Below, piece by piece: positions 1 through 21,621 of a DNA stretch of 26,570 nt. The notes under the pieces are model-generated. The model worked only from the letters and a program-made list of their open reading frames with translations, had not been told where the DNA came from and searched no databases. The position numbers and the translations under genes were made by a program. Source of the stretch: a virus. Location of the stretch: the IMG/VR virus record IMGVR_UViG_3300043395_002685, positions 1-26,570 of that record, one strand, 5' to 3'. Positions within the stretch are counted from its first letter, which is position 1. Each line of letters opens with the position of its first letter.

Positions 1-351
1 CCTTGCAGCCGACCCTGGGGCAACCCTATCCCTCCCCGGTCAATGGGAGACGCCAGGCCGCCCGTCTATCAGCCCTTGGCAAAGGGACGACGAGCGAGTC
101 ATTTCAACGCCGGAAGAAGTGCTAAGAACGGTCCTCCTGCCTAGCACGCTCGGGCAGGAGGGTCGCCGCATGTCCCCATTTGCTCAGCCGTATCCGCTAC
201 ATCCGGCGGCGAGTGGGGGCAGTCGGCGGCCTTCCGTGATGGGGTCTGCCGCGAGCGTGCGTTAAGACCTGCCCCAAAACCAATGTGCGTGCCAGGGAGC
301 AGGGCATAACCCCTTTGATGGGATCGAGCACGCCGCACGTTCACGATAGAC
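1..351. other. Left-edge stretch with no confident gene
   Basis: No gene can be supported here. All three plus frames are open from the left edge and stop at about 125, 144 and 265, so the 3' end of a truncated plus-strand gene may be present, but the frame cannot be decided. A minus-strand reading frame at 141-395 has a low-complexity, Arg/Pro/Ser-rich product with no recognisable fold and I treat it as chance. The only clear structure is the hairpin at 133-161. Confidence 0.5.
133..161 (+). other. Strong 9-bp hairpin near left edge
   Basis: CCTCCTGCC (133-141) is the exact reverse complement of GGCAGGAGG (153-161), with an 11-nt loop. No T-run follows on either strand, so it is not a standard intrinsic terminator. 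A stop codon of one open frame lies in the loop, which would suit a gene-end structure for a gene entering from the left. Confidence 0.45.
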
Positions 352-525
352 ATGCCAAAAATACTTGCCATCCTCGTCGCAATAGCTGTTTCCATGGCCT
401 TTGGCTACGTCATCGGCCTGACCAAGTCGCCTTTTGAGCGGCCAATGCCTACGGATGCCGAGCTGGCCCTTGGCGCGGCGCTCATGTGCATCCTGGCGTA
501 TGGGGTGTACATGGTGCTGATATAG
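352..525 (+). CDS. Small membrane protein, 57 residues, function unknown
   Basis: The frame runs from ATG at 352 to TAG at 523-525. The product has a hydrophobic N-terminal segment (about residues 4-22), a short polar middle that includes KSPFERP, and a second hydrophobic segment (about 39-57) reaching the C-terminus, so it looks like a two-helix hairpin membrane protein. No family is recognised. It ends just before the tandem promoters at 531-591 and lies on the same strand as the secreted-protein cassette. No Shine-Dalgarno sequence precedes the ATG. Small two-helix proteins near phage structural genes may be holins, holin antagonists or superinfection-exclusion proteins, but nothing here decides between these. 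Confidence 0.5.
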   Translation: MPKILAILVAIAVSMAFGYVIGLTKSPFERPMPTDAELALGAALMCILAYGVYMVLI

Positions 526-530
526 GCGGG

Positions 531-560
531 TTGGAAAAACAGGTATCTGTCGGGTATACT
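531..560 (+). promoter_or_regulatory. Upstream sigma70-like promoter of the left cassette
   Basis: TTGGAA (531-536), an 18-nt spacer and TATACT (555-560) make a fair sigma70 match: 4/6 at the -35 and 5/6 at the -10. It lies immediately upstream of the better promoter at 563-591. A transcript from here would carry a short leader and could use the ATG at 592 or at 601. Confidence 0.4.
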
Positions 561-562
561 GC

Positions 563-591
563 TTGACAAATGCCTATTTTTAGGCTATAAG
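563..591 (+). promoter_or_regulatory. Near-consensus sigma70 promoter with operator-like repeat
   Basis: TTGACA (563-568), exactly 17 nt, then TATAAG (586-591). This is the best promoter seen in the window. The spacer contains a perfect inverted repeat, GCCTA-TTTT-TAGGC (572-585), where a repressor would block polymerase. Transcription would be expected to start near 598, only a few bases before the ATG at 601, so the first mRNA may be almost leaderless. Confidence 0.7.
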
Positions 592-600
592 ATGCACATT

Positions 601-1137
601 ATGCGTACAATCCTCGCTGCTATCGCCATCGTCTTGTTGATCGCGCCTTTCCAAGTAGATGCGCGTTCTTATCGCACAAGCCCATCTGATGTACGCATCA
701 ACGGCTATTATAAAAAAAACGGTACATACGTCGCCCCATACTATCGTACACCGCCAAACAGTACGAAGTTAGACAATTACGGGTGCATAGATAGTGGGCG
801 CTGTGAGGCTTCGCCCGCCAAGTCCTCATACAGTGGACCAGTCTATGCAAATCCTTCGTACGTTCCGAATACGCCTTGGCAGGCTCCATCGTGGAATACG
901 CAGGATGCCGTATGGTGCCAACGTACATACCCAGGGCGTGTCTATGTAGACGGTAGGTGCACTTGCTTGGAGGGGCAGGAAGAAACTGGCACGGGCTGCA
1001 GAGAGAAGATAGGGCCTAGCGTCACAATAATCGAGCATCAAATAAATACGGTCGTCCCGAAATCATCCAAGGGGCGTATCAAGACATTTACTGACGGCTC
1101 GAAGTTAGACCTGGACACGATGCAGGTGGTCAAATAA
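601..1137 (+). CDS. Secreted Cys-rich protein, 178 residues
   Basis: Exported protein of unknown function. Residues 1-21 form a clear signal peptide (Arg near the start, hydrophobic core, VDA before the predicted cut). Residues 30-60 carry a GYYKKNGTYVAPYYRT segment followed by DNY; this resembles a short motif found in many small secreted bacterial proteins. Six cysteines (62, 68, 106, 120, 122, 133) suggest three disulfides; the last ones follow a C-x-C-x2-G-x4-G-x2-C spacing like EGF-type or small disulfide-rich domains. The C-terminus is GRIKTFTDGS and then acidic/hydrophobic. I place the start at 601 because the promoter's -10 ends at 591 and MRTILAA is a normal signal-peptide start; an in-frame ATG at 592 would add three residues. 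No Shine-Dalgarno sequence is seen. It is the first gene of the left cassette. Confidence 0.75.
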   Translation: MRTILAAIAIVLLIAPFQVDARSYRTSPSDVRINGYYKKNGTYVAPYYRTPPNSTKLDNYGCIDSGRCEASPAKSSYSGPVYANPSYVPNTPWQAPSWNTQDAVWCQRTYPGRVYVDGRCTCLEGQEETGTGCREKIGPSVTIIEHQINTVVPKSSKGRIKTFTDGSKLDLDTMQVVK

Positions 1138-1165
1138 ATGTCTGCAGCCCTGGCTTCGCTTAGAT

Positions 1166-1429
1166 ATGACGAATGACCTGATACTTCTCGGCCTGTTCCT
1201 CCTCGGGGGTTGGTTCGTGTATGCCGAAATGAGGGAGGGGGCGAAGGCGAAGGTCCGGCACTTCGGAAAGCATGTTGCATTTTTCATGCCGTTTCTCTTG
1301 TTTATGCTGTTCGGCACGATAATTTTTGACCACTACGACTACCCGACTGGCATCGTGATACTTATCGGCATGGCGGGTTACTACCTGGCCCGGAAGCGTT
1401 GGATGAAGCCCCCGGCTCCGAGGGTATGA
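1166..1429 (+). CDS. Small membrane protein with about three helices, 87 residues
   Basis: Integral membrane protein of unknown function. Hydrophobic segments lie at about residues 5-20, 37-54 and 59-74, with a charged loop (EMREGAKAKVRHFGKH) between the first two and a basic, Pro-rich tail (RKRWMKPPAPRV). It follows the 178-residue secreted protein after 28 nt and overlaps the next gene by ATGA (1426-1429), the classical translational-coupling overlap. Size and topology would fit a holin, an immunity or a superinfection-exclusion protein. A lysis role is less likely because the lysis-type genes are on the other strand far away. Confidence 0.65.
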   Translation: MTNDLILLGLFLLGGWFVYAEMREGAKAKVRHFGKHVAFFMPFLLFMLFGTIIFDHYDYPTGIVILIGMAGYYLARKRWMKPPAPRV

Positions 1430-1698
1430 ACCACAAACTCATAGCAGCGTCATTGACGGGGCTGGCTCTTGCCGGGACTGTTTACAGCGTCAGCCAAGCA
1501 CCCAAAGAACCGCAGGCCCAGGTTGAGACTGTGGATTGCAAAATAAAGGGGAACGTGAGCGCATCCGGGGAGAAGATATACCACATGCCCAGCGATCAGT
1601 ATTACGATGTCACGGAGATTGACCGCTCGAACGGCGAGCGTTGGTTTTGCAGCCCGGAGGAGGCTAAAAACGCCGGATGGCGGCACTCAAAGCGCTAG
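1426..1698 (+). CDS. Secreted sunset-domain protein, 90 residues
   Basis: Small exported protein. Residues 1-26 look like a signal peptide or anchor (NHK then a hydrophobic run). Residues 38-86 match the small conserved domain usually found at the C-terminus of secreted thermonuclease-like proteins and called the sunset domain: CKIKGN, then SGEKIYH, YYDVTEID, GERWFC, EEAKNAGW. Two cysteines (38 and 75) probably pair. The nuclease domain is absent; this is the domain alone. The start at 1426 gives the signal peptide and the ATGA overlap with the upstream gene; an in-frame ATG at 1399 would add nine polar residues and is unlikely. Its TAG stop shares the CTAG at 1695-1698 with the stop of the convergent 751-residue gene. 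The biochemical role of the domain is not established to my knowledge. Confidence 0.75.
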   Translation: MNHKLIAASLTGLALAGTVYSVSQAPKEPQAQVETVDCKIKGNVSASGEKIYHMPSDQYYDVTEIDRSNGERWFCSPEEAKNAGWRHSKR

Positions 1699-3950
1699 AT
1701 TTTCGGCTTCTTGACCACGGAGGGCTTGTACTTGAACTTAAATTGCGAGAACACCTTTTTTTGCGCCTCGGCATCCATGCCATTGAGGATGGTCAGTTTG
1801 TCCTCGTCAGACAAATCCTTGTAGGTCGGCTTGTTTATAGCCTCCTCTAGCATCTTGCGGAGGTGGTAGCCATAGCGCATTTTGGCATTCTCCCAATCGC
1901 TTTGGCTGTGTTTTTCCTTGAACTGCGCCAGGGTCTTGCTGGTACTCTTCTCCCAATCCGTAAACGTAATGCCTTTGCCGACAGCACTTGATACGTCGCT
2001 AATCTCCTTGATGACCGCGTTCTCCCGGTCCGTTTTGACCCGTGAGCCAAACAAGATTTGAGACAGTCCCGGCTCTGCGGGTAGCTCGTTGTTGAACACA
2101 TCGCGTTTGATGGGCTGTTTCTCCCGAAGGAAAGGCACTTTTGCCTTGATACGCTGGATGCTCCCACCTGTTGTCACACGCTCGAAGTCGTCCATGGCGT
2201 AGGCAGCATCGCTCAAGATGCTCGGAACAAGGCGGCTATAGGCATAGTCGCTAGCGAAATTGAAAGCCGCCGTCGATAGCGCATCCGCACCCTCGAAGGC
2301 GTCGGCAAGGTCTTTGTCTGCGTCAATCAAGTCCTCAATAACCGGGAGGTTGCCGATGCTGTATCCAAGGCCTTTGCCGAAAGCCACGGCCTTTTCAGCA
2401 ACGCCACCGCGTTGCTTCCGGGCGTACATGATGGCCGTAACAGGGACGGCGAGGGGACCGAGCCAGTCGGTCGCTATCCATTTGCCGCCGACCCGGATGG
2501 TGTTTTCTCGGGAATTGCGAAGCTCCTCTATCTGTTTTCGCTTAGGGTCATAGGCCCCCACGAAGTCGTCGTCATCCAAGTAGGCGGCGATGATTGCGGC
2601 CATGGTCAAGCCGAACCCTGAGCGCACGAGGCTCTGCATGGCGCGGCGCATGTTGGCTTTGTTCCCCAGCTCCCCATTCCGAAAGGCCTGCGCGATGTCG
2701 AACGCGGCCCTCGGTATGCCAAGGCCCGCATAGTCCATACCTGTTGCGATCACGTTGGCCGGGGTTTTCACGAACGGCATTAGCTGGTCACCAATGCGAA
2801 GGTCTGGCACGAGGTTGTTTAGGATGCGGCGTATAGCTAGCGTGGCTTCCGACGCCCAAGAATCGTTGGTCCATGTGGCGGTCTGCGCGTCCAGGATGGC
2901 CTGTTCTCGCAATAATTCGCCTGCGGGCGTCTGCGGCTCAAGCCGCATAGCATCAAGCATCATGGTCCTGGCCCTTGCCTTGTCGCCCTTGGCCATTTTC
3001 ATGGCGTTGAGGTTCACGCTGTCTGCAAAGTGCGCTCCAGCAAAAGCGGCGTCCGGCGCACCCATGAGCTGCTTGAACACGATATCCTCGACCACCCGGC
3101 CCGCGAGACGGACGGCCCCCGGCCCCTGGCTCGTAACGGTTTCTCCAACCACACGAGAGCCGGACAGCCCGGCGTCGGATATGTGCTGCATCCTCGAAAT
3201 GTCGTAGCCCGTGGCCTGGTAGATCTTGTTGACCATCTTGGCATAGTCGATGGCGAGCTGATTGTCTGCCCCGGTCACGCGCCCGCCGGACAGACGACGC
3301 ACCAACGCCTCCGTGATGGCTAGCTCGGTATTCGACCCAATGTTAAGGATGGGGGATTTGATGGAGGCGAGCATCATGCCGCGCCCTATGGTGCTAGTAG
3401 CGACTTTGAGCCTGTTGGCAGGCACGAGGCTGGCCAAGTAGTCGTCCATCTTCTTTTTTGCGGTCCAAAAGGCAAGGTTCTCATCCAGCTTTTCTGGGTT
3501 TCCCAAGTCCTCGCCAAGCGCGATCTGCGCGGCGTCTATCTTCTGCGCCCGTTCCTGGATAGCTGCAACCTCCTCCGGGCTGACGGAAACGCCTAGCTTG
3601 TCGGTTACGAGGTCTTGCAAAAAGGCCCGTTCGCTCTTGGGGTTGAGCACGCCGAGTGCATCCAGGCTCTTTATCTTATCGAGCACGGACTGATACGAGG
3701 GCTTGGTTTTGGCCTCCGGGGAAAAGACGCTCTTGGCCCAATCGGTTATGGCCGTCTTTTGCTTCGATATCATCGCCTTCTCAAACTCCGTATTGAGAAA
3801 CTTCCCGACCTGTTCGTCGGTATGCTTCACGAAGAACGCCCGGCGCTCTGCCGAGGACATTTCGTACAGGGCTTTGATATCGACGGCTCCGCGCAGGGCC
3901 GAGGCCTTTAATTTTTCGACCAAGTGGCGGGGGATACAGAACACGGCCAT
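1695..3950 (-). CDS. Large virion/polyvalent-type protein, 751 residues
   Basis: Probable internal virion (ejection) or polyvalent protein; last gene of the minus-strand block. The N-terminus has the style of large polyvalent phage proteins: IPRHLVEKLKASALRG, then a MSSAERRAFF segment. The middle has SIKSPILNIGSNTE and PFVKTPANVIATGMDY, which I recall from the large-polyvalent-protein-associated regions of metagenomic phages. Two moderately hydrophobic stretches occur around the SGFGLTMAAIIAAYL and WLGPLAVPVTAIMYA segments, which could meet a membrane during DNA delivery. The C-terminus is charged and helical and ends KPSVVKKPKI. It follows the 1171-residue gene with a TAA-T-ATG junction (3954-3948). 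The pair may be one giant protein in related phages. Exact function is inferred. Confidence 0.65.
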   Translation of the reverse strand: MAVFCIPRHLVEKLKASALRGAVDIKALYEMSSAERRAFFVKHTDEQVGKFLNTEFEKAMISKQKTAITDWAKSVFSPEAKTKPSYQSVLDKIKSLDALGVLNPKSERAFLQDLVTDKLGVSVSPEEVAAIQERAQKIDAAQIALGEDLGNPEKLDENLAFWTAKKKMDDYLASLVPANRLKVATSTIGRGMMLASIKSPILNIGSNTELAITEALVRRLSGGRVTGADNQLAIDYAKMVNKIYQATGYDISRMQHISDAGLSGSRVVGETVTSQGPGAVRLAGRVVEDIVFKQLMGAPDAAFAGAHFADSVNLNAMKMAKGDKARARTMMLDAMRLEPQTPAGELLREQAILDAQTATWTNDSWASEATLAIRRILNNLVPDLRIGDQLMPFVKTPANVIATGMDYAGLGIPRAAFDIAQAFRNGELGNKANMRRAMQSLVRSGFGLTMAAIIAAYLDDDDFVGAYDPKRKQIEELRNSRENTIRVGGKWIATDWLGPLAVPVTAIMYARKQRGGVAEKAVAFGKGLGYSIGNLPVIEDLIDADKDLADAFEGADALSTAAFNFASDYAYSRLVPSILSDAAYAMDDFERVTTGGSIQRIKAKVPFLREKQPIKRDVFNNELPAEPGLSQILFGSRVKTDRENAVIKEISDVSSAVGKGITFTDWEKSTSKTLAQFKEKHSQSDWENAKMRYGYHLRKMLEEAINKPTYKDLSDEDKLTILNGMDAEAQKKVFSQFKFKYKPSVVKKPKI

Positions 3951-3951
3951 A

Positions 3952-6900
3952 TTAGGTGCAGGCTAGGCTATCTATGAGTCTTTGAGCTTCGTTCAGGTCC
4001 AGCTCCTTTGCGGCGCTGATGGCTTCCACGGCCTTGTCCACCTGGTAGTCGATGGCGGCTACGGCTCGAGACTTGCTCCGCTTCCCGCGCACGTCTTTGA
4101 GCTTGGCGAGGGTGGTCCTGTCCAGCTTCTCCAAACGTGCCTTCACAAGCTCTTTGACGTACCGGGACGTGCTGTTATCGGTCACGCTGCCCTTTTCGGC
4201 CACAAGCTCCTGGCCACGTCTGGTCTGTTCAAGGCTGCGGTTCTTCACGAGCTGGGCGTATAGGGTGTTGTTCCCATCATCCAAAGCCTTTTCAGCCATG
4301 GCGATATTGACCGCGGTGCTGGTCTGGCCTTCCGGCGCAGGCTCGACACCCAAGGCGATGCGGTACGCCTGCTGCGGGTCGTCCCCAATGAGCTGTACGG
4401 CCTTCTCGATGTTCTCTTGGAGGTTTTGCTTCTGGTACGTCACTTCGCCCTCTAGGTCGGGGTTTTCTGCCTGTAGGCGGGCGAATACGCGGCTTTCCAG
4501 CTTCTCGTTCGTCCGGGCGCGCCTGCGGGGAGCCTGGGGCTTCTCCTTGGCCTTCCCGGACGCGATATCGGCATATAGAGCCTCAATCTTCGACTGGTTG
4601 CCAACGAAGCCGACGATGCGCTGCAAGAGGCGGTCGAAATAGAGGCGTAGCTTGCCCTTGGCCCCGGTGCGGTCCTTGGCATACTTGATAAAGTCCTCCG
4701 CGATACGCTCCTCAATCTCTGCGAAGTCGTCGATGCCGTAGACCTTCTGGCCTTCCTTGAGGATGGCGATATGCTCGGCCCGGTCCGTGAACACGTCCAG
4801 GTACTTGTGGACCGCCTCGTGGTAGAAGGTTCCCTCGGGGTCGGCCTGTCCGCCCAAGATCTCCACGATGCCGCGCTGGTACTTGCCCAAAGCATCCTGG
4901 TTGGCCAGGATTTGCCCCATGATGCGAATATCGCCGTCGCCAAATATCTTTTGGTTCAGGTCGAATATCGCCTTTTCCTGGGCGTCCGTAACCTCGATAC
5001 CCTTGGCCGCAAGGTCGTCTTTAAGCCGGAACTTGGCATTTCGCGTGTCCTTGGTTTCGTAGCTGTCCACGATGTCCCGCGCCATGCGGGAAAGCTGCTC
5101 GTTGGATTTGCCAGCCACGTCCTTGCCGAACAGGTCTTGCATGACGCGCGCCGCATCCTCCTCGATGCGGATTTCCGCACGCGGGTCGGTCCTAAACACG
5201 CCTTCTGCGAGGTCAATAAAGTCGGTCAACGCCGCGTAGTCCTCATAGTGGAGGGCAGGGGAGCCGGGCTTGCGCGGGGCGTAGTAGTCCTGATTGCTGA
5301 CGAAAGCCCCCGTGTTGTCTTTCAGGGTCGCCGTGCGGAACTTCGCCGCCTTGCTAGCGACAAACTCCTCGGCGGTCTGCTTCCGCTCGTTCGTGCGTTC
5401 TAGCTTCTCGCCCTCTTTCGCCTCTCGCTCTATTCGTTGCTCGGTTTGGCTTCGTTGCTCGGTTTGGGCTGTGGTTTCGGCTTGAACTGGCTTGCCCAAT
5501 CCTTGAACCTCTGCTCGGCCCGCTTCCGAGCTTCGGGATTTACCTTGGAGTTTTGCATATTCTTGGTCAAATTTGGCTAGCGCGGCGGCGTTCTCCTCCG
5601 GCGTAGCGAACGGATCAAATAGGTTATTGCGTTGAGCCTCGACGAACTTGGCATCGTTCAAGACTTCATCCTGGGCTGCCATCTCCTCGGCCACGACGCG
5701 GTATAGGCGCGTCTCGGCGGCCTGGGTAGGCACCGTCCCCTCCATGATGTGCCGAGAAACGGCATCGAGCAAGGGCTTCCGGCGCAACTCCGTGGGTATC
5801 CAGCTCGGAAAGGTGGACTTTTTGCCGGTGAACTTCATCGGCGTACCGGGGCCGTCGCTCGGGGTCATTATGCGCTCCCCAGCCTCGGCGTTCACCAGCT
5901 CGTTCATCACTCGGTTATGGACCGGGGTATCTTGGAACTCTATTTTTGACGGAGGGGCCGCTTTGGCGACGACAGGCTTAGCTTCTGCTACGATAGGCGC
6001 TTCCGTCGGTCCTGGGGCAGTTTCAACGGCCTGGGGCTGTGCTTTGGTTTGCTCAATAGGCACCATCTCGCCCTGCTGTTCGATGTACTTCTGCACAGGC
6101 TCCACCTGCGCGGCGGCGGGTTGTGTAACAACAGGCTTGTTCTGCTGTATAGGTATCATTTCGCCGTCTTGCTCCACGAACTTCTGCGTCGGCTCCGCTC
6201 GGACCGTCGGCCCCGTGGGGCTTCCAGCCTCTCCGGGAGTAGCTGGGACATACTCAACACCGGGGGTTGGTTCTGACTTGATTGTGACACCTGGCTTGAC
6301 CGGGACCATCTCGCTGTTCCGTTCAACAAAAACCTCCTTGGCAGGAGCTGGGGGAGCCGGGGGTACGGTCGGCGCGACGGCGTCCTGTTGGACAGGGGCC
6401 GGGCCGCTCACGGCGCGATAAGCGTCCGCGATAGCGCCAAGGCCACCACCACCGATGATGCCGCCAAGCGCGGCCATGGCGTTGCGTGTCTTCACTTCGT
6501 TCCACCCCAAGTCATCGCGGAAAGTCGCCTCTGCCGCGAGCTGTAGGTTCTCTTGGGCAACCTCGGTCACAGCCTCTCCTCCGGATGCTTTGAGGGTACG
6601 GCCAAGGAAACCACCCATAAACTGCTTTTTTGCCTCGCCGGACAACACCTTTCCGGGAATGAGGCGATCTAGCCACCCGACAGCGATACCCGTGACAAGG
6701 CCAAGGTCTTCGGCCTTCTTTTCGTCCATCCCTGACTTAACCGCCTTCTCTTTCACATCCTCGGCGGTTGAGCCGACCATCGAAGCCGCGCCAAGGGCGG
6801 GGTTTACAAGATACCCGACCATAGAACCCGCCACGCTCGGGACGAGCTTGTATATCGTCTTTGGCAGGTTTTTCGGGGCAAGTCGCTCCTTCCATGTCAG

Positions 6901-7472: not shown

Positions 7473-8993
7473 TTATTTTCCTACGGAATATGTATCTTGA
7501 GGATTACGAATTCCTTTGAAACGGCTGTCAAAGGTGGTCGCGGAGAGACCCTTGGACACCCAAGCCCCTTTGAGCTTCAAGTAATCCTCCGGGGCGATGT
7601 ATCCATCGGCACCGAGCCAGGGGACGCGGGAACCGTCCGGCAGGGTCTTGGTCGCCGCGGCAATCCCGGCGTTCATTTCATTTACCGCTTCGGCCACTCT
7701 CTTTGATTCGGACACTGGCTTTTTACCAGATGCCGCGGTCGCCGCTGGCTGGTTGATACCCTTGGCCTTCTCCCAGGTCTTGCCCCCATCAAAGGAAGTA
7801 TAAGCCACGTTTTTGACTACCTTCGTTTGTGGCTTTTCTTCCTTGGTCGCAGCCCCAATCTTCGTGGCCGTCTTGCCGTCCGGGGAAACGGACCATATCT
7901 CGTCTCCGAGAATCTTCACATCGTTGCCTTGCGCCTCTGCCGGGAGAGCCTTTGTCTGATAGACCATCTGCCCGTTCACGGGATCGAGACCATAGGCGAT
8001 GATGTTATTCCCCTTGATATCCGTCTTCCAATCAATCTTTTCCGCAGGCTTGCGTGCCGCATTGAGCGCAAGGTTCAAGGAGAACTCATCCATCCCGGAG
8101 TTTTTGAGGAGGGCGGCTAGCTGATCTGGCGCCTTCTCTTTGAGCTGGTCGAGCGACATGCCAGCGGCCCCAAGCCCTTTGATATATTCCTTCGCCTTGC
8201 CCTGCGCCTCGTCCAAATACTTGCTGTAGGCGTCGGCGTTTCCGATAGCCTCTTGCTTCTTGGCCTCAATCTCCTTGGTGGCGATGCTGTCGATTTGGGA
8301 GATGATGTCATTGACCTTGGCGGCGCGCTCGGCCTGGATAGCCTCTATAGCCTTGTTTCCCGCGTTCCGCTGGTTCATGTCGTTGGCATTGCCAAAGTCC
8401 GAGCCAATGAGGCCAGAACGGGCGTTTACGGCCCTGGTAGCCCCGGCATTCGCCTCGTTGGCCCTGCCTTGGTTGCGAAGGATGTCCTGATAGGCCAGCT
8501 CAACCGCATCAATCCTCGCCTGTTGCCGCTTCCGCACGTCCTCGCGGATAGCCGCCTCGTCCACGCCCCCGGTCCGGGACGCCTGGAACTCTGCAGCCGT
8601 CATGGTCGTCGGGATGGAGCCGGGGGTCGCCTGCGGGGACGCTCCCGCCGGGCCTGTGGGGGCGGGTGTGGTGGACGGAGCCGCGACCGAAGGGGCCAGG
8701 CCCGTGTTCACGCTCCCGTCGGCGTTGTAGCGGGTCGTCGGCTTGGCGGGGTCGGTCGGCTTCGCCATAGGTACGCCCTGGTCAGGACGTTGGGCGTTTA
8801 CCGTCGTCATGGCCTGATACTGCGTCCCATCTGCGCCCGTCCCACCGCGAACAAGGACGCCGGGCGTTTTCATAGATACCGCCTGGGTCATGGCCGCCGT
8901 GTCCGCAGAGGCGCCCTTTGCCCCCATGGCAATAAGACGGGCCTGCACGTTGGGGTCTTGGGAAACGAACGGGTCTTTTGTTTGCGTGGGCAT
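7473..8993 (-). CDS. Putative internal virion protein, coiled-coil, 506 residues
   Basis: Unrecognised protein between the LysM fibre and the giant proteins, where podoviruses keep their internal/ejection proteins. The first 150 residues are Ala/Pro/Thr/Gly-rich and probably disordered. Residues about 150-300 are strongly helical and charged, with a RSGLIGSDFG segment that I recall from similar-sized proteins of metagenomic podoviruses. Residues about 330-420 look beta-rich, including a YTSFDGGKTWEKAKG stretch typical of repeat or propeller strands. The C-terminus ends in a compact ATTFDSRFKGI segment. No export signal or enzyme motif is seen. The start is 7 nt after the TAA of the upstream gene with no Shine-Dalgarno sequence. 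Confidence 0.6.
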   Translation of the reverse strand: MPTQTKDPFVSQDPNVQARLIAMGAKGASADTAAMTQAVSMKTPGVLVRGGTGADGTQYQAMTTVNAQRPDQGVPMAKPTDPAKPTTRYNADGSVNTGLAPSVAAPSTTPAPTGPAGASPQATPGSIPTTMTAAEFQASRTGGVDEAAIREDVRKRQQARIDAVELAYQDILRNQGRANEANAGATRAVNARSGLIGSDFGNANDMNQRNAGNKAIEAIQAERAAKVNDIISQIDSIATKEIEAKKQEAIGNADAYSKYLDEAQGKAKEYIKGLGAAGMSLDQLKEKAPDQLAALLKNSGMDEFSLNLALNAARKPAEKIDWKTDIKGNNIIAYGLDPVNGQMVYQTKALPAEAQGNDVKILGDEIWSVSPDGKTATKIGAATKEEKPQTKVVKNVAYTSFDGGKTWEKAKGINQPAATAASGKKPVSESKRVAEAVNEMNAGIAAATKTLPDGSRVPWLGADGYIAPEDYLKLKGAWVSKGLSATTFDSRFKGIRNPQDTYSVGK

Positions 8994-9000
8994 AATATTT

Positions 9001-10620
9001 TTACTGCTCGTCGTAGAAAGCGGTCCAATTCACAGTCCTGGCACTACCAGATTGCGTACAAATGAGGTTAAAGCCAGATGTGGATGTCACTACGGCAACG
9101 GAAAATGTCGTAGGGCCGCTTTCTGCCCAATAAAGTGCAGAAGTACCCGAGTGTACGAAATAACTCGTCGCGCCTATCGAACCTCCTATAGCCCTTGAAG
9201 TAGAGGCGCCGCTAGATAGGGCAGTCCAAGTGCCTATGGAAGCTCCAAGGCTGTTTGTATTTCCACCTTCAAGCTCAATTCTTGTAGGAGTGAATGGTAC
9301 AGTTATCGCTTGATCGCCATTACATACGTTTGCGCTTGTTCCAGCCGTAACTGCCCTGAACTCGGGCTTACGGAGGAGCATTGTCGATGTCGAATAGGCT
9401 ATACCGACGGATACCGGGATAGTGCCTGGCGATAGAGCTATGGCCCCGCCTGTAGAAAGGTAGTATTTACTTCCGGGTGAAAGGCCAGAGAAGCCCCCGA
9501 CGATAGCACCATGCCTAGCGAAGCTGACTGAATTGCCAGCGGTCGCAGCGCTCAAAGCCACTCCTACATACGCCCAGGCTGTAGTCGATACGCTAGAATC
9601 CGCCAGGAACAGGCGAGAACTAGTTGACGAAAGAACGAGTAGACTACCGGCGGTTATCGTAGTCCCTGCCGTGCCAGTCGCAACGAGGTTTCCAAGCGCG
9701 CCCATGTTCACAACGTCAAAGGTTGTTGTGGGCGCGTTGACTAATGCGAACCTAGCCGTTGCGGTCGCGTTTCCAATAAACGAAGCCGTCCCATTGAATA
9801 CGGTAGACGTGTTCACCACACCGCCAAAAGCCATCTCGCCCGTTGTCGGATTCCTATACAACCCGCCAGTCGAGGAAACATTTACAATCGCGCACGCCGC
9901 AGCCGTTGAGCAGTTAGGTATGCCGGAAGATATGGCTGTCAAACCACCCGTTGATGAGACGTTTGCCGCCGTGAACCCTCCCGCGCCGACGCTGTCGACG
10001 TAATACTTCGAGGCAAAATAAGCCGCCGATGGTGGGATGTAGGTTGTCGAGGACGAATAGATGTTACCCGGTATGGAATCCTGCCCGTTCAACATCCGCG
10101 TAATTAGGGCGAGCTGCGGGAAGTTGGATATCTTGACCACCGCGCCGCGCCGATGCTCGGCTTTGAGGGCCGATACCTCGGTCGAACCGTCCACCGGGCT
10201 TAGCCCACGCGCGACAATGGTACAGGCCGTCGAAACGCAGGTCGCCGTCATGTACTCGTCGTCAATGCGGAACCCGTACAGCCCGGAGAGGGCCGTACCC
10301 GTACCGGGAACCGTGCCGCGGGTCAAGGTGAGGCTAGATGCCGATGACGTGATGCGCGAGGCGAGGCTATCGTCGAAGTCCGCAACCACGATAGGGAGGT
10401 TGGCTCCAAGGGAAGCGTCAATCTCTAGAACCTGCCCGGCAAGAATGAGGTCGGGGTCGGCTATGTCGTTCGCTGCAGCGATCTGCGCGACCGTCGTGCC
10501 GGACCGCTTGGCGATACCAAAGAGCGTATCCCCGCGTTTGACCGTGTACGGAGCGGCTGCGACCGGCAAAGATGAGGCCAGGAGAGCCACCGAGAGTGCG
10601 ATTGTTAAGAGCTTTTTCAT
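9001..10620 (-). CDS. LysM-containing fibre/adhesin with signal peptide, 539 residues
   Basis: Putative receptor-binding or cell-wall-binding protein. Residues 1-23 are a textbook Sec signal peptide (MKKLL, hydrophobic core, AAA). Residues 25-67 are a LysM peptidoglycan-binding domain (YTVKRGDTLFGIAKRSG, then the NDIADPDLILAGQ half). Residues about 85-180 form a beta-rich domain with a RRGAVVKISNFPQLALITRMLNG segment resembling fibres of metagenomic phages. The remainder is Ser/Thr/Gly-rich, with a GLSPGSKYYLSTGG segment common in phage fibre and decoration proteins. The start was moved to 10620 because it lies one base after the stop of the preceding gene (TAA-T-ATG) and gives the signal peptide; the frame remains open upstream to 10932 inside that gene. 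An export signal is unusual for a cytoplasmically assembled tail protein. G+C drops from about 60% to about 45% near 10000, so the distal part looks acquired. Confidence 0.75.
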   Translation of the reverse strand: MKKLLTIALSVALLASSLPVAAAPYTVKRGDTLFGIAKRSGTTVAQIAAANDIADPDLILAGQVLEIDASLGANLPIVVADFDDSLASRITSSASSLTLTRGTVPGTGTALSGLYGFRIDDEYMTATCVSTACTIVARGLSPVDGSTEVSALKAEHRRGAVVKISNFPQLALITRMLNGQDSIPGNIYSSSTTYIPPSAAYFASKYYVDSVGAGGFTAANVSSTGGLTAISSGIPNCSTAAACAIVNVSSTGGLYRNPTTGEMAFGGVVNTSTVFNGTASFIGNATATARFALVNAPTTTFDVVNMGALGNLVATGTAGTTITAGSLLVLSSTSSRLFLADSSVSTTAWAYVGVALSAATAGNSVSFARHGAIVGGFSGLSPGSKYYLSTGGAIALSPGTIPVSVGIAYSTSTMLLRKPEFRAVTAGTSANVCNGDQAITVPFTPTRIELEGGNTNSLGASIGTWTALSSGASTSRAIGGSIGATSYFVHSGTSALYWAESGPTTFSVAVVTSTSGFNLICTQSGSARTVNWTAFYDEQ

Positions 10621-10621
10621 A

Positions 10622-12454
10622 TTATGAGCGGTATTTTCGGGGAAGTTTGGCCTCATGGGTGCGGATGTCGTGGTCGGTGATGGCCGAAATGGAGGCGTAC
10701 CCGATGCCGCGGGCCACGAACTTGAGTTTTCTATCCATGAACTTGTCCAAACGTAGGTGGATAGGCGCGTGATAATGATACGCCTCGACTGTTGAGGCGC
10801 CGCCGCCGACCTCCTTGGAGCCGACCGTATGCGTCCCGACGAGGACGGATTGGCTGGTATCGACGTAGCTCTCGCTTCCATCGACCGTCCCAACGAGGGC
10901 CATGCCGCCCCGGTCGTTCTCCTGGTACACATCGAAGGATTGCGCCTCCTGTATCTCGCCCTCTATCCAAAGACGCTTCACCTTTTTGAGATTGCCCGGA
11001 CGTTTCAGGTTCGAGTTGTTGCCAGCCCAATAGTTGTTGATGAGGGAATCGCTATCGTCGAACCCGGAAAAGAGGGTGATGACGTTGTTCGAGATGCTTT
11101 CACCTGCGATGAGCGTCCCGTTGGCCTTGGTCGTGCAGGAGACGTAATAGTCCAGGATGTCGATGCTTTTCCAGCGCTTGTGGAAGGCAAAGAGGCGGTT
11201 ATTGACCGTAGAATCCGATGCGCGACCCGTGAACGTGATGTAATCGCCCCACTCCTCCATGCAGCAATCGTCGAAGATATAGCCCGTTAGGTCCACGTTC
11301 TCGGTTACGACGGACGGGACGATGTTGCCGGACGCGCCGGAGGGGTAGAGCTTCTTGAATTGCGGGTTAGCCGGATCAGTTGTGTCGATGAAATAGATGC
11401 CGTCCCCAGCCGCTATAGCCGCGCGAGGGGAGGGGATGCCGACATTGACCCGGAAGATATCGTTCGAGGCCGCCGTATCGGTCGCCGTGAGGGTCAAGGC
11501 CCAGGAACGGTGCTCATGGAGGCAGAAAAGCGTGTCTCCGATGGGCAAGATGTTCATGAGCTTGCTGCCGCCGTCGTCCTGCCGGAATACGAAGCCCTGG
11601 CCAGCCGTGCGCGGGGTAGACTTGGAAAAGTCCGTGATGCCCGCCGCGTTGCTGTTCTCCCATTGGTAGTCAGCCGTCCCGACGCCAGCGTTCGACAAGG
11701 TGTATTCCCCGGTCGTGTAGTTGATGGTCCCCGTACCGCCCAAGGAGCCGGTCAGGACGCCGTTGTAATTGTCTGTATAGACCTCCCCGGAAGCCGTGAT
11801 GGTGATTGCGACGCCAAAGCACGTCCGCTTAGGCCCGGCCGCCTTGAACGCGAGCGTGCCGGAGAGCGAGGTGGTCGCCTCTGCCGAAACGGTCGTATAG
11901 GTCGCCGTGTCGATGTATGAGCCGTATGGCGCGGTTATGTCCGTCGTGCGCTGCCACAAGAGCATCCTGTTCTGATGGATTGCTATGAGGCCCTTAAAGT
12001 TTTTGGTGCTGTCGTAGAGGTCCGTATAGCTCCCCGGATTGGCCACCATGACCTTGAACAAGGAGCTGTTGGGGGACGAGAAGAACATCATCGCCCCGGC
12101 ATTGGTCGAGTAGTTGGCAAAAAAGACGTTCTCGCCGTCCGCGGCCGTTCCGAGGATGTCGGAACCGAGCTCGGTCCATGGACCATCAACGGCGTTGGTC
12201 GTATATTCGACCTTCTTGCCACGGGCGCGGTAGTAGACCTCCGTGCCGTCGGCTTTGAAAGCGGTATGGATGCCCGTAACCCGGCCAGTCCCGGCGATTT
12301 CCGTCCCGATCACGCGGGAGCCCCGACGAAGCTCTATCTTGTCGCCTTGCGTGAGCCAATTTAGCGCATCCGAAGCCGCACCATCAGGGATGCTCTGGTC
12401 TTCGATGCTATCGACGACCCCGTGCTTGAACGCTGTTACCCGGTAGTCCTCCAT
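10622..12454 (-). CDS. gp10-like packaged-DNA stabilisation / tail hub protein, 610 residues
   Basis: Probable tail-machine protein that closes the portal-adaptor channel or forms the nozzle, equivalent to P22 gp10 or T7 gp12. The opening DSIEDQSIPDGAASDALNW segment with ELRRGSR is typical of this family: a short strand exposing Asp/Asn before the first propeller blade. The rest is almost entirely beta, with repeated strand-turn motifs such as FFANYSTNAGAMMFF and IAAGDGIYFID. The C-terminal region (KKVKRLWIEGE, HYHAPIHLRLDKF) is also characteristic. Its position just after the adaptor gene supports the call. It starts two nt after the TAG of the adaptor gene with no Shine-Dalgarno sequence. 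The family assignment is from fold-like features, not a search. Confidence 0.7.
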   Translation of the reverse strand: MEDYRVTAFKHGVVDSIEDQSIPDGAASDALNWLTQGDKIELRRGSRVIGTEIAGTGRVTGIHTAFKADGTEVYYRARGKKVEYTTNAVDGPWTELGSDILGTAADGENVFFANYSTNAGAMMFFSSPNSSLFKVMVANPGSYTDLYDSTKNFKGLIAIHQNRMLLWQRTTDITAPYGSYIDTATYTTVSAEATTSLSGTLAFKAAGPKRTCFGVAITITASGEVYTDNYNGVLTGSLGGTGTINYTTGEYTLSNAGVGTADYQWENSNAAGITDFSKSTPRTAGQGFVFRQDDGGSKLMNILPIGDTLFCLHEHRSWALTLTATDTAASNDIFRVNVGIPSPRAAIAAGDGIYFIDTTDPANPQFKKLYPSGASGNIVPSVVTENVDLTGYIFDDCCMEEWGDYITFTGRASDSTVNNRLFAFHKRWKSIDILDYYVSCTTKANGTLIAGESISNNVITLFSGFDDSDSLINNYWAGNNSNLKRPGNLKKVKRLWIEGEIQEAQSFDVYQENDRGGMALVGTVDGSESYVDTSQSVLVGTHTVGSKEVGGGASTVEAYHYHAPIHLRLDKFMDRKLKFVARGIGYASISAITDHDIRTHEAKLPRKYRS

Positions 12455-12456
12455 AG

Positions 12457-13086
12457 CTAGCCCATTATTCCGTTCGCCACGTCCGGCTGCTGGCTCCCTT
12501 CTGCATACTGGCCGCTTTCGATAGCCGCCTGCTGCAAGGCTACGTCCCAGTCAATCATGGCGCGGCGCAATAGCTCGCGCTGGACCGACCACTTATCATC
12601 CCAAGACCGGCTACGGTCGCCCTGGTCGATAGCAAAGAACAGCTCGGCCATCTCAAAGGCGATGAGCTTGTGGAACTTGGCGGGCCAGATGGGGGAAGTG
12701 GAGAGCGTCAGGTCGTCCGTCTGCTTCTTGTAGAAATGCTTGATGGTCCCCGACAGGTTCGATCCGGTGAGGTAGAACTGGCTGTTGGCCATGTCCAAGT
12801 ACCAATACCCGCCCCCGGTGTACAAGTCCTGCTTCTCGAACGGAACCTGTATCAAGGGGTTTGATGCGCCGGAAATACGCATCTCAATCGTCCCTAGGTA
12901 GCCCGTCGGCAGGGTCTTGGCGGCAGAACTGGCCGACTGCGAGCTGTCCAGCCGCTTGACCATGGCCCAAGGCCGCTCGCCCTCAATCTTGTCCTTGGCG
13001 TTATTCGCCAGGTCAACAGCAAAATCCGCATCGAGCGTGTCATCGACCAGGTTCTCGAAAAAGTCGATAATTTGCTGTGTTGTCAT
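12457..13086 (-). CDS. Head-tail adaptor protein, 209 residues
   Basis: Probable connector protein between portal and tail. Helical N-terminus (MTTQQIIDFFENLVDD) with a RPWAMVKRLD segment; then a beta-rich middle in which YWYLDMANSQFYLTG is followed by IKHFYKKQTDDL; then a helical C-terminus with IWPAKFHKLIAFEMAELFF and QGDRSRSWDDKW. This order of segments, including the Trp-Pro-Lys-Phe-His helix, is what I recall for podovirus adaptors that precede the stabilisation protein, and the next gene is exactly that. The start follows the stop of the holin-like gene by 4 A/T-rich nt. No Shine-Dalgarno sequence. Confidence 0.65.
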   Translation of the reverse strand: MTTQQIIDFFENLVDDTLDADFAVDLANNAKDKIEGERPWAMVKRLDSSQSASSAAKTLPTGYLGTIEMRISGASNPLIQVPFEKQDLYTGGGYWYLDMANSQFYLTGSNLSGTIKHFYKKQTDDLTLSTSPIWPAKFHKLIAFEMAELFFAIDQGDRSRSWDDKWSVQRELLRRAMIDWDVALQQAAIESGQYAEGSQQPDVANGIMG

Positions 13087-13090
13087 ATTT

Positions 13091-13318
13091 TTACAGCTTG
13101 CCCATCAGCTTGCCGTCTTCGGTCGTCAGGAGTTGCTTGCTCAAATAGCCAAGCGCGGAGGTCACGGCGACCGCGGCGATGGTCCGAAGGGCGGCGCCAT
13201 CGAGCGCAAAGCCTTGGTTGCTAATCATCGTTCCCATGGCCGCGAATACGGCCGCAAGGACGGACACGACGAGGCCTTTGAGAAGGTCTTTTAGGTCGAG
13301 CTTAAAAATAGGGGACAT
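13091..13318 (-). CDS. Holin-like small membrane protein, 75 residues
   Basis: Two predicted transmembrane helices at about residues 13-31 and 44-63, joined by a short loop (SNQGFALDG), with a charged C-terminal tail (TTEDGKLMGKL). The opening FKLDLKDLLKGLVVSV and the end GYLSKQLLTTEDGK recall a small phage membrane-protein family often placed near lysis genes. Size and two-helix topology fit a class II holin. It starts one base after the stop of the papain-like peptidase gene (TAA-T-ATG), which links the two as a probable lysis pair. Function is inferred from topology and context only. Confidence 0.6.
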   Translation of the reverse strand: MSPIFKLDLKDLLKGLVVSVLAAVFAAMGTMISNQGFALDGAALRTIAAVAVTSALGYLSKQLLTTEDGKLMGKL

Positions 13319-13319
13319 A

Positions 13320-14306
13320 TTAGACGTGACGAGTGACGATTAAATGGCTCATAGGGCAGGGGAACTTGTCTACCTCTTTGATCGGCAGTTCCCGGAAATC
13401 CGTAATGCCGTAGAGGCTCTTAAACAAGGCTTGCGCTTCGACCGTACCGCCGGAAAAACCAATCATGCAGTTTTCGGAGAAATGCTTGACAGCTAAGGCC
13501 GGTTTCCCTTTCTCCTTCAATATCTGTATGTTCATCTTTTTTTTTGCGCTTACAACGAGTGGACTGCCGAACGGATAGGCCCAATCAAAGCGGATAAATT
13601 GCGTTGCCTCGCTATCGAAGACGTGCCAGCATACGCCCTCCTCGTAACCGAACACCGTGACCTCGTGGGCGTATTGAGGCTTTTCCCTGTTCCACACGAC
13701 GATGCCCTTGTCGTTCATGTCGTAGAACCCGGTGACATCCACCTGGACCGGGGAGAAGCGCAGCGCGTCCTTTAGGGCCGCAGGGGAGTTGTTACCGACC
13801 CATTTCCAGTAGAAGGCCCACTTGTCCAAATTTGCCTTGCCCTTGGCCAGCAAGGGGGGTACGAGAGGGGCATACGCCTGGTCTAGCGTCATGCTCTCGG
13901 TGTACGGGTAGTCCGTCTCGTGGACGAAGCCGTTGCGGCGCGCCCATTCGGCCACCGCGCGCTTGCTGTTCCCTTGGCCGCGGATGGTCCCGGAGCCGGA
14001 ACCAAGGAAGACATCGCTCATGTTGAGCACCTCCCCGTAGCGTCGGTTGGCCAGGAACTCGACGATGTTGTTCCAGGAGAAGGAGACGCACATGAACGTA
14101 TCCCCGAAGCGGTTGCGCTGTAGCTCGCCCTCTGGGAGATAAGCCGTCCATTGACCGTCCGGCACAAGCATCTCGAAGTCCGGCCCGGCTATCCCACCAA
14201 CAGCCCCAAGTATGTGGTCCTGCCCGTCCACCTCGGACGCAATTAGGCCGCCCGTGGGCTGCACTAAGCGGTCCTTAGTAGCAAACGCGATATGTTTTTG
14301 TTTCAT
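13320..14306 (-). CDS. Papain-like C1-type cysteine peptidase, 328 residues
   Basis: Probable cysteine peptidase of the papain fold. C73 sits in DTFMCVSFSWNN, aligning with the catalytic Cys and following Ser-x-x region of papain (CGSCWAFS). H214 lies in YAHEVTVFGYEEG, matching the papain His-Ala-Val...Gly-Tyr strand. The third catalytic residue would be D231 in WHVFDSEATQF, where papain has Asn. The N-terminus (HIAFATKDRLVQPTGG) resembles papain-like proteins of metagenomic phages. There is no signal peptide. It lies beside a holin-like gene and an XhlA-like gene, and no conventional amidase, muramidase or transglycosylase is found in the window, so it is the best lysin candidate; a virion-processing role is the alternative. 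A run of nine A's followed by G (13545-13537) encodes KKK near residues 255-257 and may allow frameshifting. Confidence 0.7.
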   Translation of the reverse strand: MKQKHIAFATKDRLVQPTGGLIASEVDGQDHILGAVGGIAGPDFEMLVPDGQWTAYLPEGELQRNRFGDTFMCVSFSWNNIVEFLANRRYGEVLNMSDVFLGSGSGTIRGQGNSKRAVAEWARRNGFVHETDYPYTESMTLDQAYAPLVPPLLAKGKANLDKWAFYWKWVGNNSPAALKDALRFSPVQVDVTGFYDMNDKGIVVWNREKPQYAHEVTVFGYEEGVCWHVFDSEATQFIRFDWAYPFGSPLVVSAKKKMNIQILKEKGKPALAVKHFSENCMIGFSGGTVEAQALFKSLYGITDFRELPIKEVDKFPCPMSHLIVTRHV

Positions 14307-14318
14307 AGTTATTTTGGG

Positions 14319-14343
14319 AAAAGAGGCCAGATCTAGACGGCCT
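14319..14343 (-). terminator. Weak terminator-like hairpin before peptidase gene
   Basis: On the minus strand AGGCC and GGCCT (plus-strand 14339-14343 and 14324-14328) pair around a 10-nt loop, followed by C and four T's (14322-14319). The stem is only 5-6 bp and the T-run short, so any termination would be partial. It lies between the 71-residue gene and the papain-like gene, in one of the few real gaps of the block. Confidence 0.3.
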
Positions 14344-14348
14344 ACGAG

Positions 14349-14564
14349 CTATGCCCCGGGATTGAGAGCGAGGAGTGTCTGAAAATCAAGGTTGATTTGA
14401 TGCAGCTTCGCCTTGAATATCTGCTCCGCGACAAACACGGTAATATCCATGTTTGGGGCATGTCGTTGAAGTGTAATGAGCGCAGCTATGGCTTGGCTGT
14501 TGAATGGAATGTCCGGGATGACCGCGATAATGCGCTGCCCTTTGAATGTCGCCTCTGCCTTCAT
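14349..14564 (-). CDS. Small protein of lysis region, 71 residues, unknown
   Basis: No family recognised. The product is small with alternating strands and helices (RIIAVIPDIPF, then QAIAALITLQRHAP, then ITVFVAEQIF) and could be a small alpha/beta domain. The start at 14564 is chosen because AAGGAGG lies five bases upstream, the best Shine-Dalgarno sequence in the window; an in-frame ATG at 14588 lies in the loop of a 10-bp hairpin and has no such site. That hairpin covers the first bases of the Shine-Dalgarno sequence. The gene sits between the XhlA-like and papain-like genes and probably belongs to the same cassette. Confidence 0.55.
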   Translation of the reverse strand: MKAEATFKGQRIIAVIPDIPFNSQAIAALITLQRHAPNMDITVFVAEQIFKAKLHQINLDFQTLLALNPGA

Positions 14565-14569
14565 GACAG

Positions 14570-14599
14570 CCTCCTTCAGTCGCCTCATAGCGACTGAAG
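14570..14599 (-). promoter_or_regulatory. Ribosome binding site abutted by a perfect 10-bp hairpin
   Basis: On the minus strand CTTCAGTCGC (14599-14590) and GCGACTGAAG (14583-14574) form a perfect 10-bp stem with a 6-nt loop. The AAGGAGG ribosome site (14576-14570) begins within the 3' arm, so folding removes part of it. An alternative in-frame ATG lies in the loop. The arrangement would permit translational control of the 71-residue gene; there is no T-run, so it is not an intrinsic terminator. Confidence 0.55.
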
Positions 14600-14612
14600 C
14601 AGCCTCACGAAG

Positions 14613-14912
14613 CTAGCTGCTACGGACCACGAGTCCAGTTATCGCGCCGAGGACTGCAAGAAGGATAAAACCTGCCACCGCATAAAAGCCGTTTTTGACA
14701 GGCGAAAAATCCTCTTTTCTAACGTATGCCTCCGGCACATTGTCAACGGCATCCTTGACTGGCTTAAACTCCTGTTTTGTGACATATCCAACCTGGAATG
14801 CGCCTAGTGTCGTAACGATGCTCTTTGTGCGCTCATCAAGCCTAATAAGTAGCTCGTATGCGTTCTTTTCTCCCTCTAGCACTTGCTCGACATCTTTTTC
14901 CAAAGTGGACAT
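14613..14912 (-). CDS. XhlA-like membrane protein, 99 residues
   Basis: Small protein with a helical, charged N-terminal two-thirds and one C-terminal transmembrane helix (about residues 75-95), ending VVRSS. The segments EFKPVK (48-53) and DFSPVK (68-73) repeat just before the helix. Amphipathic or coiled-coil N-terminus plus a single C-terminal helix after an F-x-P-V-K motif is the layout of XhlA-type or spanin-helper lysis proteins found next to holins. It heads the probable lysis cassette. The call rests on topology and context. The preceding gap (14913-14945) is A/T-rich and has no Shine-Dalgarno sequence. Confidence 0.55.
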   Translation of the reverse strand: MSTLEKDVEQVLEGEKNAYELLIRLDERTKSIVTTLGAFQVGYVTKQEFKPVKDAVDNVPEAYVRKEDFSPVKNGFYAVAGFILLAVLGAITGLVVRSS

Positions 14913-14945
14913 ATACTTTTTGTATTCGCCTATTTTGCGGCGCAG

Positions 14946-15596
14946 CTAAAATGTGAGAGGACCGACAGAAGCCCCACCGCCTGGACCTCGCATATTCGTC
15001 ATGGCACGCGCGGATGGGGCTGGTGCTGTATATGGCTGTATCGAGTCGTAATACACGCTTTCGCCACCGGAAGTGCTGCAATTTATATACATGCGCGTAA
15101 TGGCACCGGAATTCGTCATGTTGTAGTCACTAGCGACCAACGCATCATTCAGGTAAACATCAAACTTATTTGTTGACGCGCGCAAAACGACCCGAATCTT
15201 GTTCCACGCGCCTCCTGTAACTGTCCCAACATTAACATTGGAAGCGCCGTCATTTACATATAGGGCGCCATTCGACAAGTAATTTACGCGAATGTCCGCA
15301 CGAGAACTTCCCCCAGATCGGAACTCTATCGCCCCGTATGCGTTGGTCGTCCCTGATGTCGGGAAAACATAAATCTCCATCTCATCCCCATCAGATGCGG
15401 TGAAGTTGCGATATGCGTAATCATCTGCGCCCGTGAACTTCGCGGATAGCGTGCCGGATTGCGCTTGCGCGTTTGATATTGTCGGCGCGCCGCCAGCTAA
15501 TGCCCAGGCACTACTCCAACCAGACCCGCCGTTTTTTCCGTTCAGCGCGTCTCCATTTGCGTATGAGTCAAAGTTTTCACTTGCGGGCCAGGCCAT
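14946..15596 (-). CDS. Lectin-like (concanavalin/LamG fold) virion protein, 216 residues
   Basis: Probable carbohydrate-binding surface protein. The start (ENFDSYANGDALNGKNGG, then GWSSAW) is typical of jelly-roll LamG or concanavalin-like domains, as are SGTLSAKFTG, GDEMEIYVFP, AWNKIRVVLRAS and KFDVYLNDALV further on; these are successive strands of the sandwich up to about residue 190. A flexible Pro/Gly-rich tail follows (PSARAMTNMRGPGGG). There is no signal peptide, unlike neighbouring adhesins, so it may be a true tail or head decoration protein. It begins two nt after the TAG of the upstream gene. G+C is low (about 47%) compared with capsid genes. Confidence 0.65.
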   Translation of the reverse strand: MAWPASENFDSYANGDALNGKNGGSGWSSAWALAGGAPTISNAQAQSGTLSAKFTGADDYAYRNFTASDGDEMEIYVFPTSGTTNAYGAIEFRSGGSSRADIRVNYLSNGALYVNDGASNVNVGTVTGGAWNKIRVVLRASTNKFDVYLNDALVASDYNMTNSGAITRMYINCSTSGGESVYYDSIQPYTAPAPSARAMTNMRGPGGGASVGPLTF

Positions 15597-15598
15597 AA

Positions 15599-16048
15599 CT
15601 AAACAATTTCACCCACAGATTCTGAGATGCCTTCACCACCCGTATCGACAACCGGCTCGACAACAATACTCTCTTTGGCCTGCACCAAATCCCCGTCCTG
15701 CTGGCGTTTCTCGGCCAAAACGAGCGTATCGCCGCCGACCAGGGCCAAGGCGTCCATGTGGGCGCTGATTTCATCTAGCGTCACCTCACGCACCTCATCA
15801 TCTTTGATAATCATTTTTGACGCCTCCACTTTGGAGGCCGTATCTGCAAAAACTTTCGGGTGGAGGAGTCTAGGCGTCCGCTCGTCAAGAACGCGAGCCA
15901 TCATGGTCTTAGCCACTGAGTCGATAAGCTCAGGAGACACGTTTTTCCCCTCAATAAAACCGTTGTTCGCCTTGTCAGGGAAGCTGCCATCGTCATTGTA
16001 GATCTGAACCATCACACCTGCCTGAAGATACATCGCTTTGTAAAGCAT
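15599..16048 (-). CDS. Unknown protein, 149 residues
   Basis: No family recognised. The product starts MLYKAMYLQAG, contains a NDDGSFPDKANNGF segment and is then largely helical and acidic to a VEPVVDTGGEGISE tail, with no membrane segment or Cys. The start at 16048 is four nt after the TAA of the fibre gene, in line with the spacing seen at most junctions here; an in-frame ATG at 16063, inside the fibre gene, would add five residues (MFGKY). It sits between the fibre and the lectin-like gene, so it may be a fibre chaperone or accessory virion protein, but nothing in the sequence shows this. Confidence 0.6.
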   Translation of the reverse strand: MLYKAMYLQAGVMVQIYNDDGSFPDKANNGFIEGKNVSPELIDSVAKTMMARVLDERTPRLLHPKVFADTASKVEASKMIIKDDEVREVTLDEISAHMDALALVGGDTLVLAEKRQQDGDLVQAKESIVVEPVVDTGGEGISESVGEIV

Positions 16049-16052
16049 ATAT

Positions 16053-17324: not shown

Positions 17325-17329
17325 AGTTA

Positions 17330-17548: not shown

Positions 17549-17570
17549 AGGGTGGTCGATGTAGTCGGCC

Positions 17571-17593
17571 CATCCCCGGACGAGCCGGGGATG
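17571..17593 (-). other. Perfect 9-bp GC-rich hairpin between adhesin genes
   Basis: CATCCCCGG (17571-17579) and CCGGGGATG (17585-17593) pair exactly around a 5-nt loop. It lies in the gap between the 227-residue and 72-residue genes, and no T-run follows on the minus strand, so it is more likely an mRNA-stabilising or processing structure than an intrinsic terminator. Confidence 0.5.
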
Positions 17594-17606
17594 AAGGACG
17601 ACACCG

Positions 17607-18290: not shown

Positions 18291-18322
18291 AGAGTTTGAA
18301 AGCCTGTTAGCTTCGTTTGCTC

Positions 18323-19528: not shown

Positions 19529-19560
19529 AATTGGTTTTTGTTTTGAGCCTCACCAAGTCG

Positions 19561-21273: not shown

Positions 21274-21275
21274 AT

Positions 21276-21620: not shown

Positions 21621-21621
21621 A

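What the first reader, a model, noticed from the sequence alone, without database searches (positions are those of the whole stretch)
352..1698. Convergent cassette of small envelope proteins under its own operator-like promoter
Four small plus-strand genes encode a two-helix membrane protein, a secreted six-Cys protein, a three-helix membrane protein and a secreted sunset-domain protein. The last three follow tandem promoters; the stronger has TTGACA-17-TATAAG with an inverted repeat in the spacer. Separate control and envelope targeting suggest a phage accessory unit, for example host-surface modification or superinfection exclusion. The combination is not one I recognise.
Basis: partly seen in the sequence, partly recalled or inferred. 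Interest (0 to 1): 0.6.

Follow-up and report, generated by a model that had tools for sequence, protein, structure and literature searches.

The report
Accessory envelope-protein islet in a podophage-like virus
At the end of its virion genes, an uncultured short-tailed-type phage carries an extra group of four tiny genes for membrane and secreted proteins; it sits where Salmonella phage P22 keeps the gene that blocks DNA entry by rival phages, so it may do a similar job, but no function has been tested.

Summary
The four ORFs are real genes, placed tail to tail with the last late gene; sunset and g751 share the stop palindrome CTAG (1695-1698). The TTGACA-17-TATAAG promoter is the only 11/12 match in the window. 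The spacer inverted repeat and the upstream 'tandem' promoter are at chance level.
The combination is unique in everything searched. About 90 loci with a p181-type N-domain and 46 with a sunset domain gave no second co-occurrence. p57 and p87 have no credible relatives. Records with g751 relatives lack the islet. It is a lineage-specific accessory (moron) islet assembled from widespread secreted families, not a conserved system.
New here: (i) the sunset domain resembles the Ada N-terminal DNA-binding domain by predicted fold and by bridging sequences, without its zinc cysteines; (ii) p181-type genes recur tail to tail with large virion or ejection genes in other phages, as sieA does with P22 gene 16, though support is weak after clustering; (iii) start-codon context, TerL relatives and protein architectures point to a Patescibacteria host.
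Best mechanism, inferred only: envelope proteins made under separate control that hinder entry of further phage DNA. Ordinary in kind, moderately interesting in detail.

The parts
352..525 (+). p57: 57-aa protein with two hydrophobic segments; no credible relative found
531..560 (+). weak promoter-like match TTGGAA-18-TATACT, chance level
563..591 (+). strong sigma70-type promoter match TTGACA-17-TATAAG (11/12); predicted start about 598, giving a nearly leaderless mRNA for ATG601
601..1137 (+). p181 (178 aa from ATG601; ORF opens at ATG592): signal-like N-terminus, GYYKKNGTYVAPYYR domain (phrog_29674) and a six-Cys C-terminal part with the C-x(n)-CxC-x(n)-C module
1166..1429 (+). p87: 87-aa membrane protein, two clear hydrophobic segments and a weaker third; no credible relative in any collection searched
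1426..1698 (+). sunset protein (90 aa): signal/anchor plus Ada-like sunset domain (NF051437); start overlaps the p87 stop
1695..3950 (-). g751, last late gene, tail to tail with the islet; presumed virion/ejection protein by position, relatives in G004, L320, L333 and L334

Best explanation
The region is a lineage-specific moron islet of a tailed phage, probably podovirus-like and probably infecting a Patescibacterium. p181, p87 and sunset are transcribed from their own sigma70-type promoter, against the late operon, so they can be made when virion genes are silent. Their products go to the membrane and beyond it, and the most likely job is to hinder entry of further phage DNA, in the manner of P22 SieA. 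Shown: the genes, the promoter match, the tail-to-tail position, absence from relatives, and family membership of the p181 N-domain and of sunset. Inferred: timing of expression, host, targeting and the exclusion role.
For: Coding signal and promoter. Stops interlocked with the last late gene. Islet absent from G004, from the phage contig in a Taylorbacteria bin (L320) and from L333, whose g751-like protein is 57% identical. In P22, sieA has its own promoter and lies tail to tail with ejection gene 16, 22 bp apart; [quoted passage not shown] p181-type genes lie tail to tail with a >500-aa gene in 12 of 76 phage loci against 3% of control genes; one such gene is a PHROG 'DNA ejection protein' (L250) and another a virion structural protein (L235). 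Sunset is Ada-like by fold and bridging sequences and is fused to a secreted nuclease in L199 (Pfam SNase) and, from reading, in L185 and MT835709, so binding of DNA is conceivable.
Against: No expression or exclusion data. After clustering by DNA similarity only 5 of 56 clusters show the tail-to-tail position (P 0.03-0.07), and one of these (L256) is doubtful. g751 has no detectable profile similarity to the ejection-type proteins of L250/L251/L261, so its role is inferred from position. No integrase or repressor was recognised in the sequence held, so lysogeny is not shown. No protein resembles a known exclusion protein, and the sunset domain lacks the Ada zinc cysteines.
Confidence: 0.38

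Rival explanations
1. Host-modification morons: the proteins alter the surface, adhesion or DNA uptake of the host cell for the benefit of the lysogen or the infected cell, without excluding phages.
For: p181-type and sunset proteins are common host proteins: sunset above cut-off in 63 of 287 Patescibacteria genomes, p181 N-domain in 11. One relative carries a peptidoglycan-binding domain (L206). Adhesion-related accessory genes are reported in phages of groundwater Patescibacteriota (PMC12911398).
Against: Does not explain the position against a virion gene; no conserved link among the genes.
Confidence: 0.3
2. Auxiliary lysis or late-infection genes: small membrane proteins and secreted partners help to breach the envelope.
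For: Small membrane proteins plus secreted partners; in L213, L215 and L292 similar genes lie near spanin-, lysozyme- or amidase-type genes.
Against: The late strand already has holin-like ORFs g75 and g99 (from reading); opposite strand to the late operon; no lytic domain in the islet.
Confidence: 0.15
3. The islet is the far end of the plus-strand early region carried around a circular or terminally redundant genome, with no special role.
For: Early genes are on the plus strand beyond the right end (ERF-like recombinase, replication genes); in G006 plus-strand genes also run towards the end of the late operon.
Against: Own strong promoter; envelope-directed proteins of host-type families; the gap between the two sides is not sequenced.
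Confidence: 0.15

Closest known systems
P22 sieA (superinfection exclusion)
   Same: Small membrane-protein gene with its own promoter, tail to tail with the last ejection-protein gene; acts at DNA entry (PMC10883804).
   Different: SieA is a single inner-membrane protein; here there are four small ORFs, two with secreted domains, with no SieA-named family among their matches; exclusion is untested.
phrog_29674 / small secreted GYxRKxGTYV proteins
   Same: p181 N-domain matches (E 5e-8); shares invariant G, Y, GTY, R and N with Alteromonas, Xanthomonas and Patescibacteria proteins.
   Different: p181 adds a C-terminal Cys-rich part; only some Patescibacteria relatives show a comparable Cys module (L206, L209).
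Sunset domain NF051437
   Same: E 5e-13 and 48.8 bits against a cut-off of 27; closest to the GERWFC type, as on a secreted thermonuclease-type protein.
   Different: Here a stand-alone secreted domain without nuclease.
Ada N-terminal domain (PF02805)
   Same: Best four structural matches of the predicted model, Z up to 4.8; PF02805 and sunset profiles hit the same places in several Patescibacteria genomes.
   Different: The zinc cysteines are not kept; Z is low and Foldseek alone gave nothing significant.

Membership tests
Phage moron / accessory islet | absent from close relatives at the same place | tested here: met
   G004, L320 and L333 lack it; other genes follow g751 there
Phage moron / accessory islet | own promoter, independent orientation | tested here: met
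   11/12 promoter match and opposite strand; promoter activity not tested
Phage moron / accessory islet | expressed from the prophage or outside the late programme | not testable with these tools
   no transcript data
SieA-type superinfection exclusion | sequence or fold homology to SieA | not tested
   no direct comparison with SieA was run; family scans gave no SieA-named match
SieA-type superinfection exclusion | tail to tail with the last ejection-protein gene | tested here: inconclusive
   tail to tail with the last late gene, yes; that g751 is an ejection protein was not shown
SieA-type superinfection exclusion | blocks DNA entry | not testable with these tools
   needs a plating or DNA-entry assay
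Sunset domain (NF051437) | score above curated cut-off over the full model | tested here: met
   48.8 bits, positions 1-42 of 42
Ada Zn-binding (PF02805) | four zinc-binding cysteines | tested here: not met
   the protein has only two cysteines, C38 and C75
Conserved multi-gene cassette | same genes linked in other genomes | tested here: not met
   no second locus holds both p181-type and sunset genes; never on the same contig in the Patescibacteria genomes searched

The most novel reading that the evidence does not exclude
The place tail to tail with ejection-protein genes is a general home for phage exclusion genes, and this islet is a new multi-protein, envelope-located exclusion system in a Patescibacteria phage, using an Ada-like DNA-binding sunset domain outside the membrane to trap incoming DNA.
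Probability: 0.1. Interest if true: 0.75.

Novelty: new variant of a known kind. Interest (0 to 1): 0.42.

Why it matters
If right, it extends the P22 sieA arrangement to phages of uncultured, probably ultra-small bacteria and gives a simple rule for finding exclusion genes: look for small secreted or membrane genes tail to tail with ejection-protein genes. Linking the sunset domain to the Ada fold would also give a first testable activity (DNA binding) to a domain found on secreted nucleases and ribosomal proteins.

Tried and rejected
p181 relatives by single-sequence scans of viral contigs and phages: none; the profile scan succeeded. p87 in phages, viral contigs and 287 Patescibacteria genomes: only chance-level hits. 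Close DNA relatives of window 1-5000 in named phages: none. tRNA or Rfam elements marking an attachment site in the window: none. 'Operator' in the spacer: rejected as chance. Foldseek search of the sunset model against PDB gave no significant match; Ada appeared only in the second alignment. Homology of g751 with ejection-type proteins of L250/L251/L261: not detected. Proteobacterial host: disfavoured by start-codon context; Bacteroidota not excluded, since crAss001 shows a similar context. The 70% sunset hit in 'Bacteriophage sp.' MT835709 is a thermonuclease-type gene beside bacterial-looking genes, so not a phage precedent. The p181 model had low confidence overall (pLDDT 63.5) and was not searched.

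Full report
What the window is. It is a 26,570-base virus record without end repeats. A second contig, IMGVR_UViG_3300047546_001801, is 99.7% identical over window 8814-26570 and continues 5.1 kb to the right. The minus strand carries the late genes from terS and terL down to g751; to the right of terS the second contig has plus-strand early genes with ERF-, NinB- and replication-protein-like ORFs (names from my reading of the sequences). The islet lies at the other end, tail to tail with the last late gene. The sequence left of position 1 is not known.

The observation. The four ORFs behave as genes: their own frame scores best in a codon model built from the late genes, although p181 scores weakly (0.01 per codon, other frames negative) and is poorer in GC. 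Hydropathy gives two segments for p57, a signal-like start for p181, two clear segments for p87 (a weaker third from reading) and a signal or anchor for the sunset protein. The promoter TTGACA-17-TATAAG is the only 11/12 match on either strand of the window and is rare in shuffles of its intergenic region (P about 0.0007). The other promoter and the inverted repeat are at chance level. If p181 starts at ATG601, as the T at -1 suggests, transcription from this promoter would give a nearly leaderless mRNA (inference).

The parts. p181: its N-domain belongs to a widespread family of small secreted proteins (phrog_29674; alignments). Its C-terminal Cys module fits a C-x(n)-CxC-x(n)-C pattern seen repeatedly in two Patescibacteria relatives, L206 and L209, and in 0.6% of shuffles of p181 (the pattern was written after seeing the three proteins). 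Sunset: 48.8 bits against a cut-off of 27. The predicted structure is confident over the domain, and the best four matches after realignment are all the Ada N-terminal domain, Z 2.8-4.8; Foldseek alone found nothing significant. Independently, Pfam's Ada_Zn_binding family and the sunset family hit the same places in several Patescibacteria genomes, for example G045:C2, G055:C3, G161:C3 and G112:C8. I read this as distant homology with loss of the zinc cysteines. p57 and p87 have no credible relatives (p57 was only scanned against family libraries and the fetched loci).

Linkage. About 90 loci with a p181-type domain and 46 with a sunset domain were examined; only the window (and its own copy L001) holds both. 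In 287 Patescibacteria genomes the sunset profile matched 77 (63 above cut-off) and the p181 profile 11; the three genomes with both (G055, G135, G260) have them on different contigs. The islet is therefore a local assembly. It is absent from the records found with g751 relatives: G004 has a 51-aa membrane ORF there instead, and in L320, L333 and the more distant L334 same-strand ORFs follow.

Position. In P22, sieA with its own promoter lies 22 bp from and tail to tail with gene 16; SieA blocks DNA injection, and escape mutations map to ejection genes 16 and 20 (PMC10883804). p181-type genes in phages lie tail to tail with a gene of more than 500 aa in 12 of 76 loci against 3% of control genes. 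Those large genes matched a DNA ejection protein in L250, a virion structural protein in L235 and an endolysin-type family in L212. In L250, L251 and L261 two small secreted genes sit between that gene and a fibre-like gene. After clustering only 5 of 56 clusters remain, one doubtful, so this is a lead, not a law.

Host. Relatives of TerL above 45% identity over most of the protein in the genome collection were only in a Taylorbacteria bin and an Aenigmatarchaeota bin (best 80 loci kept). The Taylorbacteria contig also carries a g751 relative, 34% identical. Late genes mostly lack Shine-Dalgarno motifs and prefer T before ATG (72% against 9% internally; 65% in close TerL relatives, 47% in Patescibacteria pieces, about 20% in Firmicutes and Proteobacteria contigs). 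A Bacteroidota phage shows a similar pattern. A Patescibacteria host is likely but not shown.

Mechanism. The arrangement fits envelope proteins made independently of virion genes. By analogy with sieA I favour hindrance of further phage DNA entry (0.38), followed by host-surface modification (0.3). Expression, localisation and exclusion are inferred. As a kind it is a known thing, a moron; the composition is new.

Noticed in passing
window late genes; G004, G018, close TerL relatives: Genes mostly lack Shine-Dalgarno motifs and strongly prefer T at -1 (TATG): 72% in the window, 92% in G004 and G018, against 9-29% before internal ATGs.
   Followed up: partly
L181-L200: In most of these Patescibacteria loci the membrane-anchored sunset gene lies between a divergent methyltransferase-like ORF (MxYAFVLGRVYTLSLAEL) and a cysteine-desulfurase-like ORF; names from reading.
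   Followed up: no
L250 7743-8162, L261 7759-8162, L251 2356-2824: Two tiny secreted-protein genes, one of p181 type (51 aa in L250 and L261), sit tail to tail with ejection-type genes and beside a fibre-like gene.
   Followed up: partly
L059 6133-8141: A phage has a ComEA-like helix-hairpin-helix ORF, two small holin-like ORFs, an amidase-like ORF and a secreted sunset protein in one run (names from reading).
   Followed up: no
window 13320-14306: Late gene with a weak papain-family match (19.3 bits, cut-off 20.7), conserved in G004 (52%) and detectable in G006 and G012.
   Followed up: no
PDB 8crx chain e (outside the window): A sunset-type domain forms the C-terminus of ribosomal protein L4 in a solved ribosome (E 1e-5), so a solved structure of a relative may exist.
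   Followed up: no
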